From Alistipes senegalensis (lineage in GTDB: Bacteria > Bacteroidota > Bacteroidia > Bacteroidales > Rikenellaceae), in NCBI GenBank assembly GCA_023664045.1, contig JAMPGH010000001.1:426589-490588 (forward strand): a DNA stretch of 64,000 nucleotides, given 5' to 3'. The notes beneath the pieces are model-generated. The model was not told the DNA's origin and ran no database searches. It saw only the letters and a list, made by a program, of their open reading frames with translations. Positions 55,756 to 64,000 of this stretch are shown here, piece after piece; within the stretch, counting starts at the first letter, position 1; each line of letters opens with the position of its first letter. The position numbers and the translations under genes were made by a program.

Positions 55756-56970
55756 CTACAGCGGCCACTTCAGCTCGTCGGGCGTCGTCGCTGCAGCGGC
55801 GTCGGCCGGTTTCTTGTAGGGAATGAACTTGCGGTAGTAGGGCGTGAAACGTCCTTTTTCCAGCAGCCACGGATTCCGCTCCACCAGCTTGCGGATGTAG
55901 TTCTGGCAGCAAAGGTGCCGCATGTAGCCAAGATAGGAGTTCACCGTGGCCACCATCAGTTCTTGCGGTCGATAGGCCGCACTGCTCAACTGACGGTTGA
56001 TGCGGCGCTTGGTCTTGTTGACAAGATAGCGGCGGTAGGGCTTGATGTTGGCTCCCAGAAAGTTGACTCCTTTGGTTACTTCCTGAAGATAGATCTTGTC
56101 GGGGTGTAGTTGCAGACCCAGTTCTTCTTTCAGAAAATTCCGGATGACGGGCACCAGCTGCATCAGCCGCGCACGGTCCGTGCCGACAAGGTAGAAGTCG
56201 TCGACATAGCGGCCGTAATGTTTCACCCGCAGCGTCCGTTTGATGAAATCGTCCAGCTTCGACAGGTAGACATTGCTGAATAGTTGCGAGGTCAGATTGC
56301 CGATCGGCAGACCGCAGCCGTCCGGCGTATGGAACAGACTCTTGGAGGGCGGCAGGCCGATCCATTGTTTCTGGTTGCCGCGGACTTCGCAGTTTTCGGT
56401 CGGGTCGTTGAAGACGATCTCGCGGGCAAGGTAGCGGATCAGGTCGTAGTCCAGAACTTCGCTCCACGTCTTTCCGTCGTAGGCTTTGCGCGGGGCGAAG
56501 CGGTCCAGCTTCTCCATGATGATATTGAAAAGAAGTTCCCGGTTGATATTCATAAAGTAGCCTTGAATATCCAGTTTGAGCAGGTAGCACTTCCATTGGT
56601 AGTTGTTCGAGCACGAGCGGATGTGGTGTTCCAGCCGGCCGATTCCGAAATGGGTGCCCATGCCTTTGCGGCAGGAGTAGCTGTCGGTGATGAAGGTGCG
56701 TTCGAACAGGGGGCTCACATAGTTGCACAGCAGGTGATGCACCACGCGATCGCGGAAATCGGCCGCAAAGATCTCCCGCTTGACCGGGATGTTGGTCATG
56801 AAGCAGATGCTACGGCCCACATGGTAGCGGCGTTCGTCGATTTCATGGTAAAGTTCCATCAGGTTGTCTTCAAGATTCATCTCGAAGCGCAGTTGGCTGA
56901 GGGTGTTGCGTTTATTTTGCCGGGCATCATAATACGCATTGAAAAGGTCGGTCAGTAGTTTTTCATTCAT
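55756..56970 (-). CDS. Diversity-generating retroelement reverse transcriptase
   Basis: Group II-intron-like reverse transcriptase, 404 aa, of the DGR clade, which copies a template RNA with errors at adenines and replaces a variable repeat in a target gene. Motifs: RYHVGRSICFMTNIPVKREI (about 50-70), FRDRVVHHLLCNYVSPLFER, YLLKLDIQGYFMNINRELL (domain 3, catalytic Asp), GLPIGNLTSQLFSNVYL (domain 4, the (I/V)GNLTSQ signature that separates DGR enzymes from other RTs), HYGRYVDDFYLVG (catalytic YVDD, about 200-212) and LGLQLHPDKIYLQ. The start at 56970 (MNEKLLTDLFNAYYDAR) was chosen by homology; the frame extends upstream into array unit 1. It is the last gene of the MSL-avd-array-RT locus. Confidence 0.93.
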   Translation of the reverse strand: MNEKLLTDLFNAYYDARQNKRNTLSQLRFEMNLEDNLMELYHEIDERRYHVGRSICFMTNIPVKREIFAADFRDRVVHHLLCNYVSPLFERTFITDSYSCRKGMGTHFGIGRLEHHIRSCSNNYQWKCYLLKLDIQGYFMNINRELLFNIIMEKLDRFAPRKAYDGKTWSEVLDYDLIRYLAREIVFNDPTENCEVRGNQKQWIGLPPSKSLFHTPDGCGLPIGNLTSQLFSNVYLSKLDDFIKRTLRVKHYGRYVDDFYLVGTDRARLMQLVPVIRNFLKEELGLQLHPDKIYLQEVTKGVNFLGANIKPYRRYLVNKTKRRINRQLSSAAYRPQELMVATVNSYLGYMRHLCCQNYIRKLVERNPWLLEKGRFTPYYRKFIPYKKPADAAAATTPDELKWPL

Positions 56971-57055
56971 AAATCGATCTTGTTTTTTATTTCGGGTGAA
57001 TAGCGGCCGGACAGTGCGCGACTTCCGGCATGCAAAGAATAAAAAGCGGCTCCTG

Positions 57056-57265
57056 CAGATGCTGGACGCAGCGCACAGGGAAGCCGTAAGCACGGTTGTT
57101 ATTGTTCAGCGGGTTCACGTTCGTCGGGTTGAAGTCAAGATAGCCGGCATTGGCACTGCCCGACGTAGGCGAAGAAGACCAGGCATAGCCGTTCGTGCCG
57201 ACGCCCCACAGATCTCCCGTCGTGTTGTTGCGGAGGCCCGAAGCAACTGTAAAGCAATCGCTGGA
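57056..57265 (-). repeat. Array unit 1 (nearest the reverse transcriptase)
   Basis: The core reads RNNTTGDLWGVGTNGYAW ... NNNNRAYGFPVRCVQHL. It is the most Asn-rich copy at its 3' end but has TGG GGC at a site where other units have AAY, so it is not a simple parent of the others. It is followed, 26 bases on, by a distinct hairpin GCCGGA/TCCGGC (57006-57029) before the reverse transcriptase gene. Confidence 0.8.
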
Positions 57266-57569
57266 ATGGATGACGCAAAGAATGCGGAGAGTTGAACGAG
57301 GAGCGGTCGATAATGGATATTTTCCGCAAAGACAAAAATAAGGATCCACTATTCGTTCTTCCTCATTCATCGGACCGCAGGCTCCGCGGCAAACTGGGAT
57401 GAATAACTGACGGTACGGCAGGGGATGAGTCTGCACGGTGCGTACCGCCAGCGGATCGCTGAATCTGCAAACCTCGCTGACGAAAGCCGTAGCCTCCGCC
57501 ATTCCGGGTCGCGGAGCCGCTTTTTACGGATGTGCGGATTGCCAAAGCGAAAAATAAAACGACTTCGCG

Positions 57570-57786
57570 CAGATGCTGGACGCAGCGCACAGGGAAGGCG
57601 TTAGCCCGGGCGTTATTATTCTGCGGGTACACGTTGCCCGAGTTGAATTCAAGATAGCCGGCATTGGCACTGCCCGACGTGGGCGAAGAAGACCACGAAT
57701 AGCCGTTCGTGCCGACAACATTCAGGGCTCCCGTCTCACGGTTGCGGTTGCCCGAAGCAACTGTAAAGCAATCGCTGGATTGAATG
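57570..57786 (-). repeat. Array unit 2
   Basis: The core reads GNRNRETGALNVVGTNGYSW. The nucleotides of GNRNRETGALN are identical to those of units 5 and 6, suggesting recent copying between units. The downstream hairpin element is at 57449-57509, with a weakened stem. Confidence 0.8.
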
Positions 57787-57973
57787 CCGCAGAGAAGCGT
57801 ATGGCTCCGCAGCAGGCTGGGATGAATAGCTGGCGGGATGCCGCCAGCGGATTGCGGAATCTACGGACCGCGCTGACCGGAGCCATAGCCCCGGCCATTC
57901 CGGGTCGGAGAAGTCGTTTTTTTGGTAACCGAGCGGTCATTCAGGAATCCCGGAAAGGATAAAAGCAGCCTCG

Positions 57974-58193
57974 CAGATGCTGGACGCAGCGCACAGGGAA
58001 GGCGTTCGCGCGATTGTTGCTGTTCAACGGCGTCATCTCGCTGGCCAGAAAGCGCAGATTGCCCGCATTGGCGCTGCCTGCTGCGGCCGGCGAGGAGGAC
58101 CAGGAGTAGCCATACGTGCCGACGACATTCAGGGCTCCCGTCGTGTTGTTGCGGTTGCCCGAAGCAACCTTATGGCAATCGCTGGATTGAATG
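57974..58193 (-). repeat. Array unit 3
   Basis: The core reads GNRNNTTGALNVVGTYGYSW, then a strongly altered stretch LRFLASEMTPLN where others have F-N-S-T-N-V-N-P. The downstream hairpin element is at 57845-57905. Confidence 0.8.
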
Positions 58194-58438
58194 CGGCGGC
58201 GAAGGGATCGACACCGTCGCAGGCTGGGATGAATAACTGCTTCTTTCGAATCGGGGCTCCGACCGTCGGAAGAGGGTCGGATCCACATTCTCGGAAACCC
58301 GTTTCTCAACGGGCCGGGGCAGTGGATTGCGGAATCCGCGGACCTCGCTGACCGGAACCGTAGCTTCGGTCATTCCGGGTCGCAAAGGTTGTTCTTATCC
58401 CGTTCCGGGGCTCCGGAGGAATAGTAAAACAGTCCCCA

Positions 58439-58656
58439 TAGATGCTGGACGCAGCGCACAGAGAAGCCGTTGGCCCGATTGTTATTGTTCAGCGGGTTCA
58501 CGTTCGTCGAATTGAAGTTCAGGTTGCCCGCATTGGCATTACCGGCTGCGTAGGGCGAAGAGGACCAGGCCCAACCGCCCGAGCCGACACTCGACAGGGC
58601 TCCCGACGTACGCTCGCGGTAGCCCGAGGCTGCGGTAAAAGACAATCGCTGGAATG
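58439..58656 (-). repeat. Array unit 4
   Basis: The core reads GYRERTSGALSSVGSGGWAW and ends NNNNRANGFSVRCVQHLWG. The downstream hairpin element is at 58320-58380, with stem ACCG/CGGT variants. An AT-rich palindrome is inserted between this unit and unit 5. Confidence 0.8.
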
Positions 58657-58724
58657 GATGCCGGAAAGAAAACCTTTCTTAATGAACTTTACGAATGAGC
58701 GAGGGCAAAGACCGCTTGCGGACT

Positions 58725-58770
58725 CTGCCGAGCAGGAGTAAAGTCAAACCTCCGCAGGGGAGGTTTAATA
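58725..58770 (+). repeat. Second copy of the REP-like hairpin element
   Basis: TGCCGAGCAGGAGTAAAGTC followed by AACCTCC ... GGAGGTT. About 80% identical to the element at the end of the MptE-like gene (45677-45722), with a compensatory base-pair change. A short plus-strand frame ends at the equivalent TAA here too. Confidence 0.65.
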
Positions 58771-58872
58771 GTTAATAGTGAATAATTATCAAAAGGAACA
58801 GAGACCAATAGTTTTTGCGGATTTGTGAACTCACAAAAAATTATTCACTATTCATTATTAACTATTAATTAA
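58766..58872. repeat. AT-rich palindrome inserted in the array
   Basis: Arms around TTAATAGTTAATAGTGAATA (58766-58791) and the complementary TTCACTATTCATTATTAACT (about 58848-58868) enclose about 55 bases. AT content is far above the surroundings. A partial relative is at 60147-60225. Confidence 0.7.
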
Positions 58873-59092
58873 GGTTGCTTCCCGTCAGGCTGGGATATAC
58901 ACCCCGCTTGGCAGGGCAGGGACAGAGGAGACCGAACAGAAAGAACCGGCTCTATCTCCCCTTGAAACCCCGCTCTCAGCAGGGGGATTGCTGAATCTAC
59001 GGACCGCACTGCCGAAAACCGTGATCTTCGGCATTCCGGGTCGGGGGACTGTTTTTTCCGGGTGGACCGAACGATAGAAATACAGCCCCACG

Positions 59093-59316
59093 CAGATGCT
59101 GGACGCAGCGCACGGTAAAGCCGTTAGCGCGGTAGTTGCTGTTCATCGGATAGGACTGACCCGAATTGAACTGAAGATAGCACGCATTGCCACTGCCGGC
59201 TGCTGCCGGCGAGGAGGACCAGCACTCGCCGTACGCGCCGACATTGTTCAGGGCTCCCGTCTCACGGTTGCGGTTGCCCGATGCGAAGCCATAGCAGGCA
59301 ATCGCTGGATTGAATG
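59093..59316 (-). repeat. Array unit 5
   Basis: The core reads GNRNRETGALNNVGAYGECW. The only open frame spanning hairpin, FIPA block and core without a stop is here (148 codons from 59443), but the same layout is frameshifted in other units. The downstream hairpin element at 58980-59042 has stem GCCGAA/TTCGGC, a full compensatory variant. Confidence 0.8.
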
Positions 59317-59493
59317 CGGCGGCGAAAGGATCGACACCGTCGCAGGCTGGGATGAATAGCTGCGATCGCCGGGATATCGCCCGGAGGGGCAGCGGATTGC
59401 GGAATCTGCGGATCTCGCTGGCCGGAGCCGTAGCCCCGGTCATTCCGGATCGGGGCGGGGCCGTTTTCTATCGGAAAGTCGAAAAACAGCCCG

Positions 59494-59712
59494 CAGATGC
59501 TGGACGCAGCGCACGGTGAAGCCGTTCGCGCGATTGTTGGATTGCTCCGGTCGCACGTACGTGGAGTAGAACTCCATGTTGCTGGCGTTGGCACTACCCG
59601 CAACGGGCGACGAAGACCAGCAGCCGCCCCACGTGCCGACGTTATTCAGGGCTCCCGTCTCACGGTTGCGGTTGCCCGAAGCAGCTGTAACACGGCAATC
59701 GCTGGATTGAAT
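59494..59712 (-). repeat. Array unit 6
   Basis: The core reads GNRNRETGALNNVGTWGGCW, then ANASNMEFYSTYVRPEQ. The downstream hairpin element is at 59390-59450, with stem ACCGG/CCGGC. Confidence 0.8.
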
Positions 59713-59899
59713 ACCGCAGAGAAGCGATGGCTCCGCGGCAGGCTGGGATGAATAGCTGCCATCGCCGGGGATATCGGCCGGGCAGCGGATTGCGGAATCT
59801 GCGGACCTCGCTAACGGGAACCGTGATCCCCGTTATTCCGGGTCGGAGGCTGTTTCTCTCCTATATCGTAAGGATCGAGTCGATAAAAAACAGCCCTCG

Positions 59900-60122
59900 C
59901 AGATGCTGGACGCAGCGCACAGGGAAGGCGTTGGCACGATTGTGGTCCGGCACGGGACCCACATACGTCGAGTTGAAATTCAGGCCACCGGCATTGCCGC
60001 TGCCCGATGCAGGCGAGGAAGACCAGCAGAGGCCCTGCGCGCCGACATTGTTCAGGGCTCCCGACGTGTTGCCGCGGTTGCCCGAAGTCAGACGTAAACC
60101 ATGAGGAGCAATCGCTGGAATG
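59900..60122 (-). repeat. Array unit 7
   Basis: The core reads GNRGNTSGALNNVGAQGLCW, then LNFNSTYVGPVPDHNRANAF. It has the longest spacer (23 bases) between CGATTG and the core. The downstream hairpin element at 59783-59842 has stem ACGGG/CCCGT, another compensatory variant. Confidence 0.8.
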
Positions 60123-60146
60123 GAAACCGAAAAGGAGACCTTGTCG

Positions 60147-60225
60147 AGTGAATAATGAATAGGAATAATTCCCAAGATGGCGAAAAACGATTGTTCACTA
60201 TTCATTCTTACTTATATTCATTCGA
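60147..60225. repeat. Partial AT-rich palindrome between units 7 and 8
   Basis: GAGTGAATAATGAATAGG and a complementary TTCACTATTCATTCTTAC about 45 bases on. Related to the palindrome at 58766-58872. Confidence 0.55.
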
Positions 60226-60385
60226 AATCAGCTTCCCGGCAGACTGGGATGAAAAACTGACGGACAGAAAGACCGCCAGCGGATTGCTGAATCTACGGAC
60301 CGCACTGGCAGGAGCCGTAGCCCCGGCCATTCCGGATCGGGAGGGCTGTTTTTTCGCTCGCGGACTGAGTGGAAACAGCCACGCG

Positions 60386-60602
60386 CAGATGCTGGACGCA
60401 GCGCACGGTAAGGCCGTTGCTGCGAGCGCCGCTGTTGAACGGGTTCACGTTCGTCGCGTTGAATCCCAAGTAGCCGACATCGGCACCGGAGGACTGCGGC
60501 GAAGAGGACCAGCAGTAACCATTCGCGCCGACATTCGTCAGGGCTCCCGTCGTACGGTCGCGGAAGCCCGATATACTGCCTTAGAAAGCAATCGCTGGAT
60601 TG
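60386..60602 (-). repeat. Array unit 8
   Basis: The core reads GFRDRTTGALTNVGANGYCW, then QSSGADVGYLGFNATNVNP. A TAA lies in frame four codons before the core's SerGly, so this core cannot be the end of a longer protein. The downstream hairpin element is at 60277-60336. Confidence 0.8.
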
Positions 60603-60777
60603 TGCTGACGCAAAGAATGCGGGGAAATATCGGGTCGCAGGCTCCGCGGCAGACTGGGATGAACAGCTGGCGGATCATGCCGCCCGCCAGTGCGGGGATC
60701 GTTTCGGGGTGCTCGCAGATGCCGAGTTCGTTCCGCCGCGGGGCGGGTCTTCCTCTCCGACCCGCAGATAAAAAGTG

Positions 60778-60998
60778 CAGATGCTGGACGCAGCGCACGG
60801 GGAGCGCGTATGCCCGCTCGCCATTGTTGAGCGGATTGACGCCGCTCGCACGAAACCAAAAGTCGCCTGCGTTGGCAATGCCGGCTGCAAGGGGCGACGA
60901 ACTCCAGCATCCGCCCTCGGTGCCGACAACACCCAGAGCTCCCGTCTGTCGGTCGCGGTAGCCCGAGGCAGGCGCGAGTAGCAATCGCTGGGGGTGAA
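60778..60998 (-). repeat. Array unit 9
   Basis: The core reads GYRDRQTGALGVVGTEGGCW, with the WSSSP serine encoded by AGT instead of TCN. It is the most diverged unit, and its downstream hairpin element is not recognisable. Confidence 0.75.
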
Positions 60999-61270
60999 TG
61001 TTCCGAAGAAATCTCCGCAGGTCGCAGGCGGAATCCAGCTCCGAAACAGACTGGAATAGGATAGCTGACGATTCGGGTTCGGAATGCGGCCGGAGCCGGG
61101 CTCCGGAGTTGCTGCACGTTCCGTCCCGAAATACCGCCTGCGAGCGGTTCTCGGCGTCAGCGGATTGCTGAATCTACAAATCGACCGCGCTGACCGGAGC
61201 CGTAGCCCCGCCATTCCGGGTCGGAAACATGCTTTTTATCTCAGGGTCGGGCAGAGGATAAAAACGGAAG

Positions 61271-61492
61271 TAGATGCTGGACGCAGCGCACGGGGAAGGC
61301 ACTGGTACGGTCCGTATTGTTCAACGGGTTCACGTTGCCGGAGTTGAAGTTCAGATAGCCGGCATTGACATTGCCGGCAGCTGCCGGCGAGGAGGACCAA
61401 CAGAGGCCGTTCGTGCCGACAGCGGTCAGAGCTCCCGTCGTGCAGCTGCGGAAACCCGAAGCAGTCGTAAGGAACAATCGCTGGATTGAATG
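61271..61492 (-). repeat. Array unit 10
   Basis: The core reads GFRSCTTGALTAVGTNGLCW, then VNPLNNTDRTSAFPVRC. The downstream hairpin element is at 61158-61220, with a short insertion in the second stem. Confidence 0.8.
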
Positions 61493-61614
61493 TTCCGGAG
61501 ATGTTTTCCGGAGCGTCGGGGTCGTTCCGGATCGGAAATGCTGTTTTTTATCAAGTCGTAAAAAATCAGGGTATCAGTTTTGTCAAAGAGCCTGAGAATA
61601 AAAACAACTTCAGG

Positions 61615-61837
61615 TAGATGCTGGACGCAGCGCACAGTAAAGCCGTAAGCACGGGCATTGCTGTTCTGCGGGTTCACGTTCGTCGAATTGAAATTCAAGT
61701 TGCTCGCATTGGCATTGCCTGCAGCGTAAGGCGAGGAAGACCAGTAGACGCCTGTTCCGCCGACACTCGTCAGGGCTCCCGTCGTGTAGGTGCGGTAGCC
61801 CGATGCAGGCCGTCGAAGCAATCGCTGGAATGAATGG
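61615..61837 (-). repeat. Array unit 11 (nearest avd)
   Basis: The core reads GYRTYTTGALTSVGGTGVYW, then FNSTNVNPQNSNARAYGF. Only a remnant of the downstream hairpin is left (about 61519-61539). Upstream, a full hairpin element at 61986-62046 lies directly after avd with no core before it. Confidence 0.8.
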
Positions 61838-61985
61838 CAGGAAAAGTTTTTCGAGGCAAGCCGATAACGAAGGATTCCGCGACACGGAAAATTCATTCTT
61901 ACGGCTTATCGTCGTACGCTTCCTGTCAGACTGGGATGAAAAGCTGCGGGCACGGCAGGGGATGAGTCTGCATCGGAGAGTGCCG

Positions 61986-62046
61986 CAGCGGATTGCTGAA
62001 TCTACGGACCTCGCTGGCCGGAGCCCGTAGCCCCGCCATTCCGGGT
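61986..62046 (-). ncRNA. Candidate structured RNA element (first copy, after avd)
   Basis: Representative of about ten copies in the array. On the minus strand GACCCGGAATG leads into a stem (GCCGGGG/CTCCGG type), then CAGCG ... CGCTG enclosing GATTCAGCAATC. Between copies the first stem changes in a compensated way (ACCGG/CCGGT, ACGGG/CCCGT, GCCGAA/TTCGGC). DGR template RNAs need structured sequence downstream of the template, so this may be that element (inference). Confidence 0.55.
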
Positions 62047-62073
62047 CTCGGAGAAGCCGTTTTTCTCTTATTC

Positions 62074-62472
62074 TCATTCCGTCTCTCCGGGCGCCGACGC
62101 GGGTTCCGGAGTTCGGGATTTCGTTTTTTCCTTAAGCAGGTATTTCTGCCATGCGCTCAGTTGATGCGATATGACATCGAGGTGTTCGCAGAGCATGGCG
62201 TATTGTTTGGTGGAAAGTTGCTGGGTGTCGTGCAGCAGGCGGATCAGCAGTTTGATCGGCACGAGCGCCTCGCGGGCCTGTTCGATCAGAGGACCTTTTT
62301 CGGCCGTGAGGTTGGCCCGGTAGATGCAGATGCACAGTCCGAGAATCTCTTTTTTGAGCGACTCGCCCAGCGTATAGCGGGCGTCGCGCCGAATGTTGAC
62401 CGAGAGTTTCACCACCTGCAACAGCAAATCGTACGTAGCCTTGAAAACAGGCAAATTGTCATAGATAGCCAT
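62074..62472 (-). CDS. avd: Avd-like accessory protein of the DGR
   Basis: A 132-aa all-helical, basic protein of the Avd/S23-like four-helix-bundle family, which forms a pentamer that binds the DGR reverse transcriptase and template RNA. Typical segments are LPVFKATYDLLLQVVKLSVN (about 7-26), RYTLGESLKKEILGLCICIY (about 32-51) and LIRLLHDTQQLSTKQYAMLCEHLDVISHQLSAW (about 75-107). Its start overlaps the 3' end of the MSL-like gene by 14 bases, so the two are coupled. The array begins right after its stop. Confidence 0.85.
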   Translation of the reverse strand: MAIYDNLPVFKATYDLLLQVVKLSVNIRRDARYTLGESLKKEILGLCICIYRANLTAEKGPLIEQAREALVPIKLLIRLLHDTQQLSTKQYAMLCEHLDVISHQLSAWQKYLLKEKTKSRTPEPASAPGETE

Positions 62473-63550
62473 CGATCTCTTTTTTCAAATCTGCAACAAA
62501 CAAAACACATTCCACGGGTGTCGAGGCTTCGAGGCGGAATTCGCGGATCAGCCGGGCCACCCGTTCTTCTCTGGTCTCGGAACGGCCGGCGGGCACTTTG
62601 CGGAGGGATTCGCGATCGCCCGGTCGCAAGCGGCACTCGGACGATTGCGGGCTTTGCGGTCCGGGAAGTTCCGCCGGCCCCGAAAGCCGGGGTTCCGCGG
62701 ATAATCCCGCCCGGTCCGACCTATCGGCTGCCGCAGGTTGCGATCCGGCGGCTTCGATTTGGCCTATATCACTGATTCCCAATACTTTGCATGCCAGCTT
62801 CCGCAGCCACTCCGGACGGCGGCGCTCGCTCGCCTCGCTGCCCGCTTCCGAGGATCGCCGCAGCCTTTCTCCGGACCGAGCTCCGTCGCCCGTTCCGCAG
62901 GAGCCGTCCACAGCCCCCCTTCCCCCCGTCGTCAGCTCCGGTCGGTCGCTTCCGTTCCGTTGCTCGGGATCGCCCGTCCGCAGCTCTCGCAGCAGACGAG
63001 AGCGTTCTTCCGACAGAAGCTCCGGCACCCCGGCGTTCAGGGCCTCGGGTCCTGCCACAGCCCCCCTTCCCCCCGTCGTCAGCTCCGGTTGTTCGGCCCC
63101 CGTCGTGCCGGTCATGATAGCGACCGGAGCATCGGGCAGCAGGTCCGCAGGATGTACGAAGAGGTTGCCTGTGCGACTGCGTCCCAGCGTCGCGATGTAG
63201 GCTTTGCTGGTTCCGCGGGGCCGTCGTTCCCTCAGGGGGAGCGAGGACTTCCACGTCCGGCAGGCATCCGCATCGATGCGATCCTTGAGTACGATCACGA
63301 CCCGGCCGTCGGGCAGGGGTCGCGGCGCCGTGGGGAAGTACTTCGCGAGTGCGGCAGCCGGGAAACCTATCGAAGCGACCTCGCGAGCGCAGTACTTGAT
63401 GCGTTTCTTGGAGGGCTTGAAGGTCGGAATCCGGTTTACGCATGCGAATGCCGACCGGTCGTAAGCCTTGTAAAAGAGACCTTCCGGATAGAGGACTATT
63501 TCGTTCTCGTTCCGGCTCTCCCGGTTGGCGATTTCCTCGAAAAAGCGCAT
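62459..63550 (-). CDS. MutS N-domain-like DGR accessory protein (MSL type)
   Basis: A 363-aa protein starting MRFFEEIANRESRNENEIVL. The first 100 residues resemble the mismatch-binding domain I of MutS: IVLYPEGLFYKAYDRSAFAC matches the F-x-M-G-D-F-Y-E region, and EVASIGFPAAALAKYFP matches the AGVPxHALDxYL region. MutS-like (MSL) accessory genes are known beside avd in some DGRs. A low-complexity linker follows, with PELTTGGRGAV present twice (DNA direct repeats at about 62909 and 63056). The C-terminal 50 residues are charged and helical (EERVARLIREFRLEA ... VADLKKEIDGYL). No MutS ATPase domain is present. Start: ATG 63550; the frame extends to 63646 but that part lies in the repeat-bearing leader. 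Confidence 0.75.
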   Translation of the reverse strand: MRFFEEIANRESRNENEIVLYPEGLFYKAYDRSAFACVNRIPTFKPSKKRIKYCAREVASIGFPAAALAKYFPTAPRPLPDGRVVIVLKDRIDADACRTWKSSLPLRERRPRGTSKAYIATLGRSRTGNLFVHPADLLPDAPVAIMTGTTGAEQPELTTGGRGAVAGPEALNAGVPELLSEERSRLLRELRTGDPEQRNGSDRPELTTGGRGAVDGSCGTGDGARSGERLRRSSEAGSEASERRRPEWLRKLACKVLGISDIGQIEAAGSQPAAADRSDRAGLSAEPRLSGPAELPGPQSPQSSECRLRPGDRESLRKVPAGRSETREERVARLIREFRLEASTPVECVLFVADLKKEIDGYL

Positions 63551-63651
63551 GTAGCTCTGGTTCCTGCTGGAAACCTCGGGCGGCGGATTTCGGATTTTTT
63601 TCGCAAGGCCGATCCGGCTATGTCGCGACCGAAAGCTCGATCGCACAGGAT

Positions 63652-63713
63652 AAACGACAGGATAACTCGGGAGAAGACAAGATAAAATGTCGGGTTATCT
63701 TGTAATTGCAAGA
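63652..63713. promoter_or_regulatory. Cluster of ACARGATAA repeats in the DGR leader
   Basis: ACAGGATAA occurs twice (about 63652 and 63664), ACAAGATAA once (63677-63685), its perfect inverse TTATCTTGT once (63695-63703) and GCAAGATA once (about 63707). All lie between the promoter (63779) and the MSL start (63550). They look like operator half-sites or an RNA hairpin. Confidence 0.55.
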
Positions 63714-63778
63714 TAGCTGGGGATGACGCTTACGGAAAAGAACGGCCGAAAAACACACTACTCAGTGGTTTCCGATAG

Positions 63779-63809
63779 CAAATTTAGACGTTTTTTCGAT
63801 AAATTCAAA
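63779..63809 (-). promoter_or_regulatory. Promoter of the MSL-avd-array-RT locus
   Basis: On the minus strand TTTG (63809-63806), 19 bases, TAAATTTG (63786-63779). A start near 63772 would give a 220-base leader. No other good promoter was seen within the array, so this one may drive the whole locus. Confidence 0.65.
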
Positions 63810-63830
63810 TATTCGGGCGCTTTTTTCGGC

Positions 63831-63858
63831 AAAAAAAATTTGCCGCCTGAACGGCGGC
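63831..63858 (-). terminator. Second terminator after the right-edge gene
   Basis: GCCGCC pairs with GGCGGC around GTTCA (minus strand), then AAATTTTTTTT. Confidence 0.8.
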
Positions 63859-63865
63859 ATTTAAA

Positions 63866-63893
63866 AACCGGAGCGCCCTGAAGCGCTCCGGTT
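63866..63893 (-). terminator. First terminator after the right-edge gene
   Basis: AACCGGAGCGC pairs with GCGCTCCGGTT, followed on the minus strand by TTTTTAAA. In tandem with the terminator at 63831, it isolates the right-edge gene from the DGR operon. Confidence 0.85.
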
Positions 63894-63936
63894 GATAAAA
63901 CATTTTTGATGCGTTCGTCTCGCTTACGCTCGCTCA

Positions 63937-64000
63937 CTATTTATTCTGGACGCAGCGCACGGAGCGCCCGATCGCCCGGCTTCCCTCATTTAACGGATTG
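63937..64000 (-). CDS. 3' end of a probable DGR target (C-type-lectin/FISUMP-like protein), cut by the window edge
   Basis: The last 20 codons of a minus-strand gene read NPLNEGSRAIGRSVRCVQNK, then TAG (63939-63937). The end matches the array cores (NPLNNNNRANGF.VRCVQHL) and shares the 15 bases GTGCGCTGCGTCCAG exactly. It then differs: AATAAATAG here, CATCT in every array unit. In DGRs the target (IMH) and template (IMH*) differ in just this way at the 3' boundary. The codons at hypervariable sites (AGC, ATC, CGC) are not those of any array unit. Whether this is a diversified target or a non-variable FISUMP protein needs the upstream sequence. Confidence 0.6.
   Translation of the reverse strand, partial: NPLNEGSRAIGRSVRCVQNK

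What the first reader, a model, noticed from the sequence alone, without database searches (positions are those of the whole stretch)
55756..63550. DGR locus in which the template position holds an 11-unit tandem array
Seen: MSL-like gene, avd and DGR reverse transcriptase on one strand, with eleven divergent copies of a TR/VR-like core between avd and the RT, where a DGR usually has one template repeat. Known: DGR RTs (GNLTSQ motif) with Avd copy one template into variable repeats with adenine mutagenesis. Inference: this is either a multi-template DGR, able to send different templates into one or several targets, or a DGR that keeps an archive of variable-repeat cassettes. I know of no described DGR with such an array.
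Basis: partly seen in the sequence, partly recalled or inferred. Interest (0 to 1): 0.93.

Follow-up and report, generated by a model that had tools for sequence, protein, structure and literature searches.

The report
Retroelement with a genome-wide template library
A gut bacterium's protein-diversifying retroelement does not own one template but a library of dozens, partly lined up beside its reverse transcriptase and mostly scattered round the chromosome, and close relatives show scattered templates copied, with targeted mutations, into one pilus-like gene.

Summary
In detail: accessory gene, avd, eleven template-like units and a DGR reverse transcriptase lie on one strand. In this Alistipes genome (one RT, one Avd) the units' 15-bp 3' end occurs 49 times: 11 in the array, 1 in the target gene, 37 dispersed. 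Five of 61 sampled genomes of the genus carry 20-89 such cores.
Array and dispersed units share one anatomy: a structured leader (40 pairs, 27 with double changes; related to Rfam RT-7 RNA), a stop-free core and a template-type end. The target is a fimbrillin-like pilin.
DGRs change only template adenines, so the template in use can be read off. G007: 22 of 39 A changed, 0 of 148 other bases. G076: 6 of 34, 0 of 153. Alistipes muris (isolate): 12 of 26, 0 others over 143 bp. All three templates lie on other contigs than the RT. In the window's genome the 40-bp target remnant equals a cassette 140 kb away and fits no array unit.
So this is a multi-template DGR with trans-acting templates. Use of array units is shown only outside Alistipes. 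Transcription and activity are untested. No held paper found describes it.

The parts
55756..56970 (-). DGR reverse transcriptase (404 aa)
   Evidence: Pfam RVT_1; GNLTSQ/YVDD motifs in translation; only copy in the genome
57062..57250 (-). template core 1 (RT-proximal)
   Evidence: 15-mer, open core
57253..57513 (-). structured leader of core 1
   Evidence: model R1 E 5.9e-26; Rfam RT-7 E 6e-17
57576..57764 (-). template core 2
57767..57909 (-). leader of core 2
   Evidence: R1 2.3e-34 (in the seed); RT-7 2.2e-20
57980..58168 (-). template core 3
58174..58384 (-). leader of core 3
   Evidence: R1 1.3e-26; RT-7 2.5e-12
58445..58633 (-). template core 4
58910..59045 (-). leader of core 4, set apart by an AT-rich insert
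   Evidence: R1 1.6e-13; RT-7 9.5e-8
59099..59287 (-). template core 5
59297..59454 (-). leader of core 5
   Evidence: R1 7.9e-30 (in the seed); RT-7 7.1e-15
59500..59688 (-). template core 6
59694..59847 (-). leader of core 6
   Evidence: R1 3.7e-31 (in the seed); RT-7 8.8e-17
59906..60094 (-). template core 7
60107..60341 (-). leader of core 7
   Evidence: R1 1.7e-27; RT-7 4.3e-14
60392..60580 (-). template core 8
60587..60766 (-). leader of core 8 (weak match)
   Evidence: R1 5e-6; no RT-7 match
60784..60972 (-). template core 9
60980..61225 (-). leader of core 9
   Evidence: R1 1.6e-21; RT-7 1.1e-15
61277..61465 (-). template core 10 (no leader match)
   Evidence: no R1 match
61621..61809 (-). 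template core 11 (avd-proximal)
61817..62050 (-). leader of core 11
   Evidence: R1 1.7e-24; RT-7 2.1e-12
62074..62472 (-). avd
   Evidence: bAvd, DivGenRetAVD, both below cut-off; only copy in the genome
   Evidence: no Pfam or NCBIfam family; frames that begin alike (MRFFEEIA) at the same place in L091, L158 and L160
63937..64000 (-). 3' end of the target gene (end of the variable repeat, target-type tail, stop); the rest lies beyond the window behind an assembly gap

Best explanation
A diversity-generating retroelement with many templates. One RT-Avd machine reverse-transcribes any of dozens of template RNAs. Each template unit has a folded leader, a core that encodes the variable part of a C-type-lectin-like domain, and a template-type 3' end. 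Eleven units form an array between avd and RT; about three times as many are scattered over the chromosome. The adenine-mutagenised cDNA replaces all or part of the variable repeat at the 3' end of one pilin-like gene beside the machine. The cell thus combines choice among inherited templates with targeted hypermutation. Shown from sequence: anatomy, one RT per genome, the adenine-only relation between dispersed templates and the target in three genomes (over part of the core in one), identity to a dispersed cassette over 40 bp in the window's genome, a mosaic target in Rikenella, purifying selection on cores. Inferred: transcription of units, the leader recruiting RT-Avd, the fold of the core, use of array units in Alistipes, and switching between templates in living populations.
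For: G007: dispersed cassette C25:16155 to target C40:26964, 22 of 39 template A changed, 0 of 148 others, Fisher 2.2e-18; next best of 19 cassettes has 36 non-A mismatches or gaps. G076: C7:97308 to C1:65502, 6 of 34 A, 0 of 153 others, 2.5e-5; next best of the 63 compared has 46. A. muris: dispersed L239, 12 of 26 A, 0 others over the 3' 143 bp. Window genome: target remnant equals the cassette at C1:342669, no array unit fits. One RT in each of 5 genomes. Leader: 40 pairs, 27 with compensatory changes; found upstream of 34 of 36 complete dispersed cores of G000 (9 of them at a distance of 326-442 nt), 13 of 13 of A. muris and 11 of 11 of G007, none of these in the model's seed. The same leader precedes templates in other Bacteroidales: in 6 of 16 loci examined the sequence after it matches a variable repeat with A-only changes over 157-194 bp. 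Pooled dN/dS 0.29 over 16 chosen orthologous unit pairs. No stop in any of 269 listed core rows.
Against: No transcript, cDNA or time-series data. In no Alistipes genome with a readable target is an array unit the clean match: 0 of 4 (G000, G007, G076, A. muris); in a fifth, L181, none of 5 array units fits and its dispersed units were not looked for. A. muris and G007 share an orthologous template, so one or a few templates may do most of the work. In A. muris the 5' part (about 45 bp) of the target repeat fits no unit in a run of 40 bp or more. In G076 63 of 88 units were compared. The window genome's own match is over 40 bp, shows no changed A, and both copies border assembly gaps. In 10 of the 16 loci no long A-only match followed the leader. 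Some template-type units follow long open frames (up to 727 codons).
Confidence: 0.88

Rival explanations
1. Silent-cassette gene conversion, as in pilS/pilE or vls systems (recalled): the units are donors for RecA-type recombination into the pilin, and the RT is incidental.
For: Units are coding fragments under purifying selection. Two G000 units share an identical core with unrelated flanks and no A change, so core transfer without mutagenesis does happen.
Against: Template-target differences fall only on template adenines (22 of 22 and 6 of 6; 12 of 12). Units and target differ by the same C/A switch after the repeat (GCAT versus GAAT) as TR and VR of the single-template Parabacteroides DGR. 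Units carry the leader found on single DGR templates.
Confidence: 0.05
2. One active template plus a graveyard: the array and most dispersed units are relics, and a single dispersed template does all the work.
For: No array unit matches the target in 4 of 4 readable Alistipes genomes; A. muris and G007 use orthologous units. Many dispersed G000 units have few AAY codons, 1-11 against 4-12 in the array. Units without a core exist.
Against: dN/dS 0.29 pooled, array pairs 0.13-0.46 and dispersed pairs 0.27-0.46 by pN/pS; no stops in 269 core rows; leader pairs kept by compensatory change. G076 and G000 use other units than G007. Array units do serve as templates in L184 (158 bp, 17 of 47 A) and in a mosaic Rikenella target.
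Confidence: 0.2
3. The units are themselves recipients: an archive in which earlier target repeats are stored.
For: G076 array unit C1:60611 differs from its neighbour C1:61032 at 15 of 33 adenines and 6 of 154 other bases, Fisher 5.8e-9, 0 of 18 adenines in reverse.
Against: It is the only such cassette pair found among 3841 unordered pairs, tested where identity was 0.8 or more. Units carry template-type ends and leaders, not target-type ends.
Confidence: 0.08

Closest known systems
Single-template DGR of Bacteroidales (here Parabacteroides goldsteinii, L169)
   Same: Target with C-terminal variable repeat, leader, template and RT on one strand; adenine-only changes (18 of 49 A over 194 bp); same end switch between TR and VR
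   Different: One template beside the RT, against 11 in an array plus 37 dispersed here
DGRs with remote targets or trans activity (Treponema denticola, PMC4891356; Thiohalocapsa PB-PSB1, PMC10907252; passages seen)
   Same: Parts of a DGR act at a distance
   Different: There, in the passages seen, a template serves remote or several targets. Here many templates serve one target
DGRs with several predicted TRs (Yan et al., PMC6642488; passages seen)
   Same: More than one TR per predicted DGR is reported: 216 of 271 multi-VR DGRs have only one TR, so about 55 have more; examples are 6 TRs in Pseudomonas costantinii (called atypical, few A-to-N substitutions) and 2 in Stenotrophomonas
   Different: No array with leaders, no dispersed library and no single target fed by many templates in the passages seen
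RT-7 RNA, Rfam RF03028
   Same: Leaders match it: 9 of 11 window units with E 2e-20 to 1e-7, below the gathering score; one L162 leader above it (125.1 against 116.8 bits)
   Different: The Rfam line as printed says only 'RT-7 RNA', gene, sRNA; here it is the 5' leader of DGR templates, in dozens of copies
Chicken immunoglobulin pseudo-V gene conversion (recalled)
   Same: Many inherited donors, one expressed gene, targeted hypermutation
   Different: Works by DNA recombination and cytidine deamination, not reverse transcription

Membership tests
Diversity-generating retroelement | Reverse transcriptase of the DGR type | tested here: met
   RVT_1; GNLTSQ and YVDD read in the translation (that these mark DGR RTs is recalled); relatives sit beside template-target pairs. 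Against: no DGR-specific RT family was hit, NCBIfam listed other RT families, all below cut-off
Diversity-generating retroelement | Avd accessory protein | tested here: met
   bAvd E 1.2e-8 and DivGenRetAVD E 1.4e-13, both below curated cut-offs
Diversity-generating retroelement | Template and variable repeat that differ only at template adenines | tested here: met
   In G007, G076 and, over 143 bp, A. muris; in the window's own genome only 40 bp can be read, without changed A
Diversity-generating retroelement | Variable repeat at the 3' end of a ligand-binding gene with C-type-lectin-like fold | tested here: inconclusive
   Repeat at the very end of a 759-aa protein in G007 that matches FimA, DUF4906 and, below cut-off, Fib_succ_major over the end. 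No structure was predicted: the machine was busy
Diversity-generating retroelement | Mutagenic cDNA synthesis and homing in cells | not testable with these tools
   Needs culture work
Classical single-template DGR | One template repeat next to the RT | tested here: not met
   11 units in the array and 37 further copies of the 15-mer with template-type ends
RT-7 RNA (RF03028) | Score at or above the family's gathering score | tested here: inconclusive
   Window units below it (9 of 11 with E up to 1e-7); one relative's leader above it
Silent-cassette gene conversion | Donor-recipient differences not restricted to adenines | tested here: not met
   40 of 40 changes at template A in the three matched stretches

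The most novel reading that the evidence does not exclude
A bacterial repertoire system: a germline-like library of about 20-90 inherited template RNA genes, each with its own structured leader, from which one RT-Avd machine draws to rewrite a single surface-pilus receptor by whole or mosaic replacement plus targeted hypermutation. New templates arise by duplication and by mutagenic write-back into the library. RT-7 RNA is the handle that makes a template usable from anywhere in the genome.
Probability: 0.5. Interest if true: 0.95.

Novelty: new variant of a known kind. Interest (0 to 1): 0.88.

Why it matters
DGRs are usually described as one template feeding one or a few targets (background knowledge and the passages seen). 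Dozens of interchangeable templates for one receptor would change what they can do: jump between inherited binding-site families and then fine-tune by mutation, much like antibody repertoires. It would also give a function to an RNA family named only for its neighbour (RT-7) and suggest how templates work at a distance. DGR finders that look only near the RT (DiGReF's default is 5 kb on each side; PMC3521204, passage seen) would miss the templates used here. A cultured carrier exists (Alistipes muris DSM 112343), so the ideas can be tested.

Tried and rejected
Array units as current templates of the window's target: rejected, all 11 have at least 11 non-A mismatches in the 40 bp. Dispersed cores as C-terminal ends of full-length target genes: rejected for G000, where none of the 47 complete cores has more than 159 upstream in-frame codons and 48 of the 49 copies have the template-type end. 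In other genomes some template-type units do follow longer open frames (up to 727 codons). Dispersed units as recipients of homing: rejected except for one array pair in G076. An own promoter (Bacteroidales -7 motif, recalled) before units: 16 of 151 with the motif against 9 expected from shuffles, no fixed position; inconclusive. N letters in the L181 target repeat as a sign of population variation: dropped, N is scattered over that locus and the N columns are not all A in the array units. G012: target and array are interleaved in a 7.66-kb duplication, possibly an assembly artefact; not counted. 'MSL' label: no family found. Structure prediction of the target: six attempts, machine busy, not done.

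Rows dropped: two G000 cores interrupted by gaps and one 3' fragment (V342669, V490534, V1539877) from alignments and counts; three gapped pairs from dN/dS, and of the A. muris-G007 pairs only eight with clear orthology were used. The codon lists and of some controls (L093, L176, L179) were printed out of frame; only base counts were used from them. In one search one site was listed twice; the count given here is of distinct sites.
Full report
WHAT IS THERE. On the minus strand of window 55756-64000 lie, in the direction of transcription, the end of a target gene (63937-64000), an accessory gene (62459-63550), avd (62074-62472), eleven repeat units (57062-62050) and a DGR-type reverse transcriptase (55756-56970). 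Each unit ends in the same 15-mer and reads through 63 codons without a stop, of the kind ASGNRNRETGALNNVG...WSSSP...NANAGYLNFNSTNVNPLNNNNRANGFPVRCVQ. RT and Avd have no second copy in the genome.

A GENOME-WIDE LIBRARY. In the whole genome (1.97 Mb, 86% complete) the 15-mer occurs 49 times exactly; with up to 2 mismatches there are 70 matches against 7 for the pattern read backwards. Eleven are in the array, one ends the target gene, 37 are dispersed. Of the 49, 47 have a complete core and none of these has a stop. None of the 47 has more than 159 in-frame codons upstream, so the dispersed ones are not ends of large genes. Of 61 genomes of the genus, own included, 14 have matches: five are rich (G000 47, G007 20, G009 38, G012 86, G076 89, targets included) and nine have 1-3. 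The isolate Alistipes muris DSM 112343 (L158) has 22: 8 in the array, 13 dispersed and one target.

THE TARGET. In G007 the gene upstream of the accessory gene encodes a 759-residue protein with matches to DUF4906 (E 2.8e-18), FimA (6.9e-7) and, below cut-off, Fib_succ_major (3e-4) at its variable end. Its three upstream neighbours match fimbrillin-like families, one of them only below cut-off. It looks like a pilus component with a variable end. In the window's genome the target is cut by a 100-N gap.

WHICH TEMPLATE IS USED. DGR mutagenesis changes only template adenines, so each target can be traced. G007: dispersed unit C25:16155 against target C40:26964 over 187 bp, 22 of 39 template A changed and 0 of 148 other bases (Fisher 2.2e-18); the next of 19 units has 36 other mismatches or gaps. 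G076: unit C7:97308, in a small second cluster on another contig, against C1:65502, 6 of 34 A and 0 of 153 others (2.5e-5); the next of the 63 units compared, out of 88, has 46. Read the other way round, 0 of 17 (G007) and 0 of 28 (G076) adenines of the target differ, which gives the direction. A. muris: dispersed L239 fits the 3' 143 bp with 12 of 26 A changed and no other mismatch; the 5' part fits no unit in a run of 40 bp or more, so the target may be a mosaic or have drifted. L239 and G007 C25:16155 are orthologous (93% identity; 3' flank alignable, 5' flank weakly). Window genome: the readable 40 bp of the target are identical to the dispersed cassette at C1:342669, about 140 kb from the RT. 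A pattern allowing only A-to-any changes, with up to 2 further mismatches, hits these two places alone, and all 11 array units have at least 11 non-A mismatches. Both places border assembly gaps and no A has changed there, so this case is supportive, not conclusive.

IS THE ARRAY USED? Not shown in Alistipes: 0 of 4 readable targets point to it, and in L181 none of 5 array units fits (its dispersed units were not sought). Since most units are dispersed, four out of four is not surprising (about 0.23 if all units were equally likely; my estimate from the unit counts). In G012 a 51-bp stretch of the target fits array unit 13990 with 3 of 8 A changed, but that region looks misassembled. Outside Alistipes array units do serve: in L184 the first of two units matches the target over 158 bp, 17 of 47 A changed. 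In Rikenella L171 the target is a mosaic: 92 bp fit one of five array units (6 of 22 A), and the 3' part fits another over 58 bp (3 of 14 A); its 5' end fits neither.

THE LEADER. Upstream of nearly every core lies a leader of about 105-360 nt. An alignment of 42 array leaders gives a 5' hairpin, two further hairpins and a closing helix; of 40 pairs, 27 have at least one sequence with both sides changed and the pair kept. A covariance model of it finds a leader at 10 of 11 window units, upstream of 34 of 36 complete dispersed cores of G000 (25 directly before the core, 9 ending 326-442 nt before its 3' motif), 13 of 13 of A. muris and 11 of 11 of G007; these dispersed ones were not in the seed (tally). 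It also finds 8 of 8 array units in A. muris and in G007, some of which were in the seed. Rfam scores it as RT-7 RNA (RF03028): 9 of 11 window units with E from 2e-20 to 1e-7 but below the gathering score, and one L162 leader above it. In 42 RT loci from outside the clade (38 of the 80, plus 4), 29 have at least one leader (E up to 0.01), 8 of them two to six, 13 none; 54 of 55 hits at E up to 1 are on the RT strand. Of 16 of these loci examined, in six (L093, L169, L176, L179, L184, L207) the sequence straight after a leader fits a variable repeat with A-only changes over 157-194 bp; the other ten gave shorter runs or none in the stretch held. This is a positive control: the leader marks real DGR templates. 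RT-7 RNA is therefore best read as the 5' leader of the DGR template RNA. What its discoverers wrote about it I could not check (paper not held).

TEMPLATE-TYPE AND TARGET-TYPE ENDS. After the shared 3' motif, units continue GCAT and targets GAAT, in Alistipes, in Parabacteroides goldsteinii (one TR, one VR) and, with one GTAT unit, in Rikenella L171. By this mark 48 of the 49 copies in the window's genome are templates and one is a target. In the 154 units collected from four genomes (seven of them exact repeats in G012) the 14-mer is invariant, and the element CCAGCGATTGC stands upstream of every one with at most 3 mismatches.

SELECTION AND TURNOVER. Sixteen ungapped orthologous unit pairs, chosen by reciprocal similarity or flanks, give a pooled dN/dS of 0.29 (pN/pS 0.13-0.46; three gapped pairs dropped); seven of the pairs are dispersed units. 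No stop occurs in any of the 269 core rows listed (targets and partial rows included). Unit order in the array is largely kept between G000 and G009, with replacements. Five of 13 dispersed A. muris units have an ortholog in place among the G007 units fetched, the other eight not. At 34 of 44 distinct sites with a call, the neighbouring upstream gene points the same way as the unit (crude gene calling), which would allow read-through transcription. One pair of neighbouring array units in G076 has the A-only signature itself (15 of 33 A, 6 of 154 others): a template can apparently be written by the system too. No other cassette pair does among 3841 unordered pairs, tested where identity was 0.8 or more. 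Two distant G000 units share an identical core with unrelated flanks.

MECHANISM, AND WHAT IS INFERRED. Shown: anatomy, copy number, A-only template-target relation to dispersed units, one mosaic target, selection. Inferred: units are transcribed; the leader presents the core to RT-Avd from any locus; cDNA replaces all or the 3' part of the target repeat; templates are exchanged over time.

COMPARISON AND NOVELTY. It is a DGR by Avd, template-target relation, RT motifs and gene order. It differs from the DGRs I know and from those in the passages seen by having a library of templates for one target. Searches of the held library found no description; most subscription papers are not held, and a large DGR survey (gkx1150) could not be read. 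Yan et al. (PMC6642488, passages) do report DGRs with several predicted TRs, so more than one template as such is not new. I therefore call it a new variant of a known kind.

Noticed in passing
G076:C1:60591-61203 (L097): Array unit 60611 looks like an adenine-mutagenised copy of its neighbour 61032 (15 of 33 A, 6 of 154 other bases): write-back into a template, or an archived target repeat.
   Followed up: partly
G000:C1:526127 and G000:C1:997145 (L021, L027): Two dispersed units about 470 kb apart share an identical core but have unrelated flanks: the core was copied between units without adenine mutation.
   Followed up: partly
L143:4306-4476 (G007:C15) and G000:C1:1539877 (L036): A leader joined directly to the tail with no core, and a 3' end without core: units that lost their core.
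   Followed up: no
L147 (G012:C85:5000-24500): Target gene and array interleaved in a 7.66-kb identical duplication; either an assembly artefact caused by shared sequence or a real transfer of several units into the target.
   Followed up: partly
G000:C5:2987-3066 (L261): A contig ends inside the 5' half of another template core, perhaps broken where template and target share sequence.
   Followed up: partly
L167, L171, L164, L166 (Rikenella), L174 (Prevotella sp.), L178 (Mediterranea sp.): Three to six leader-bearing units around the RT: multi-template DGRs probably exist outside Alistipes.
   Followed up: partly
window 58640-58900: AT-rich stretch with inverted repeats inside the leader of core 4; similar AT-rich inserts lengthen leader loops of dispersed units.
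   Followed up: no
L181:6172 region: The target repeat of this MAG holds 10 N in about 200 bp; N is also scattered elsewhere in the locus, so this is at most a hint of population variation.
   Followed up: yes
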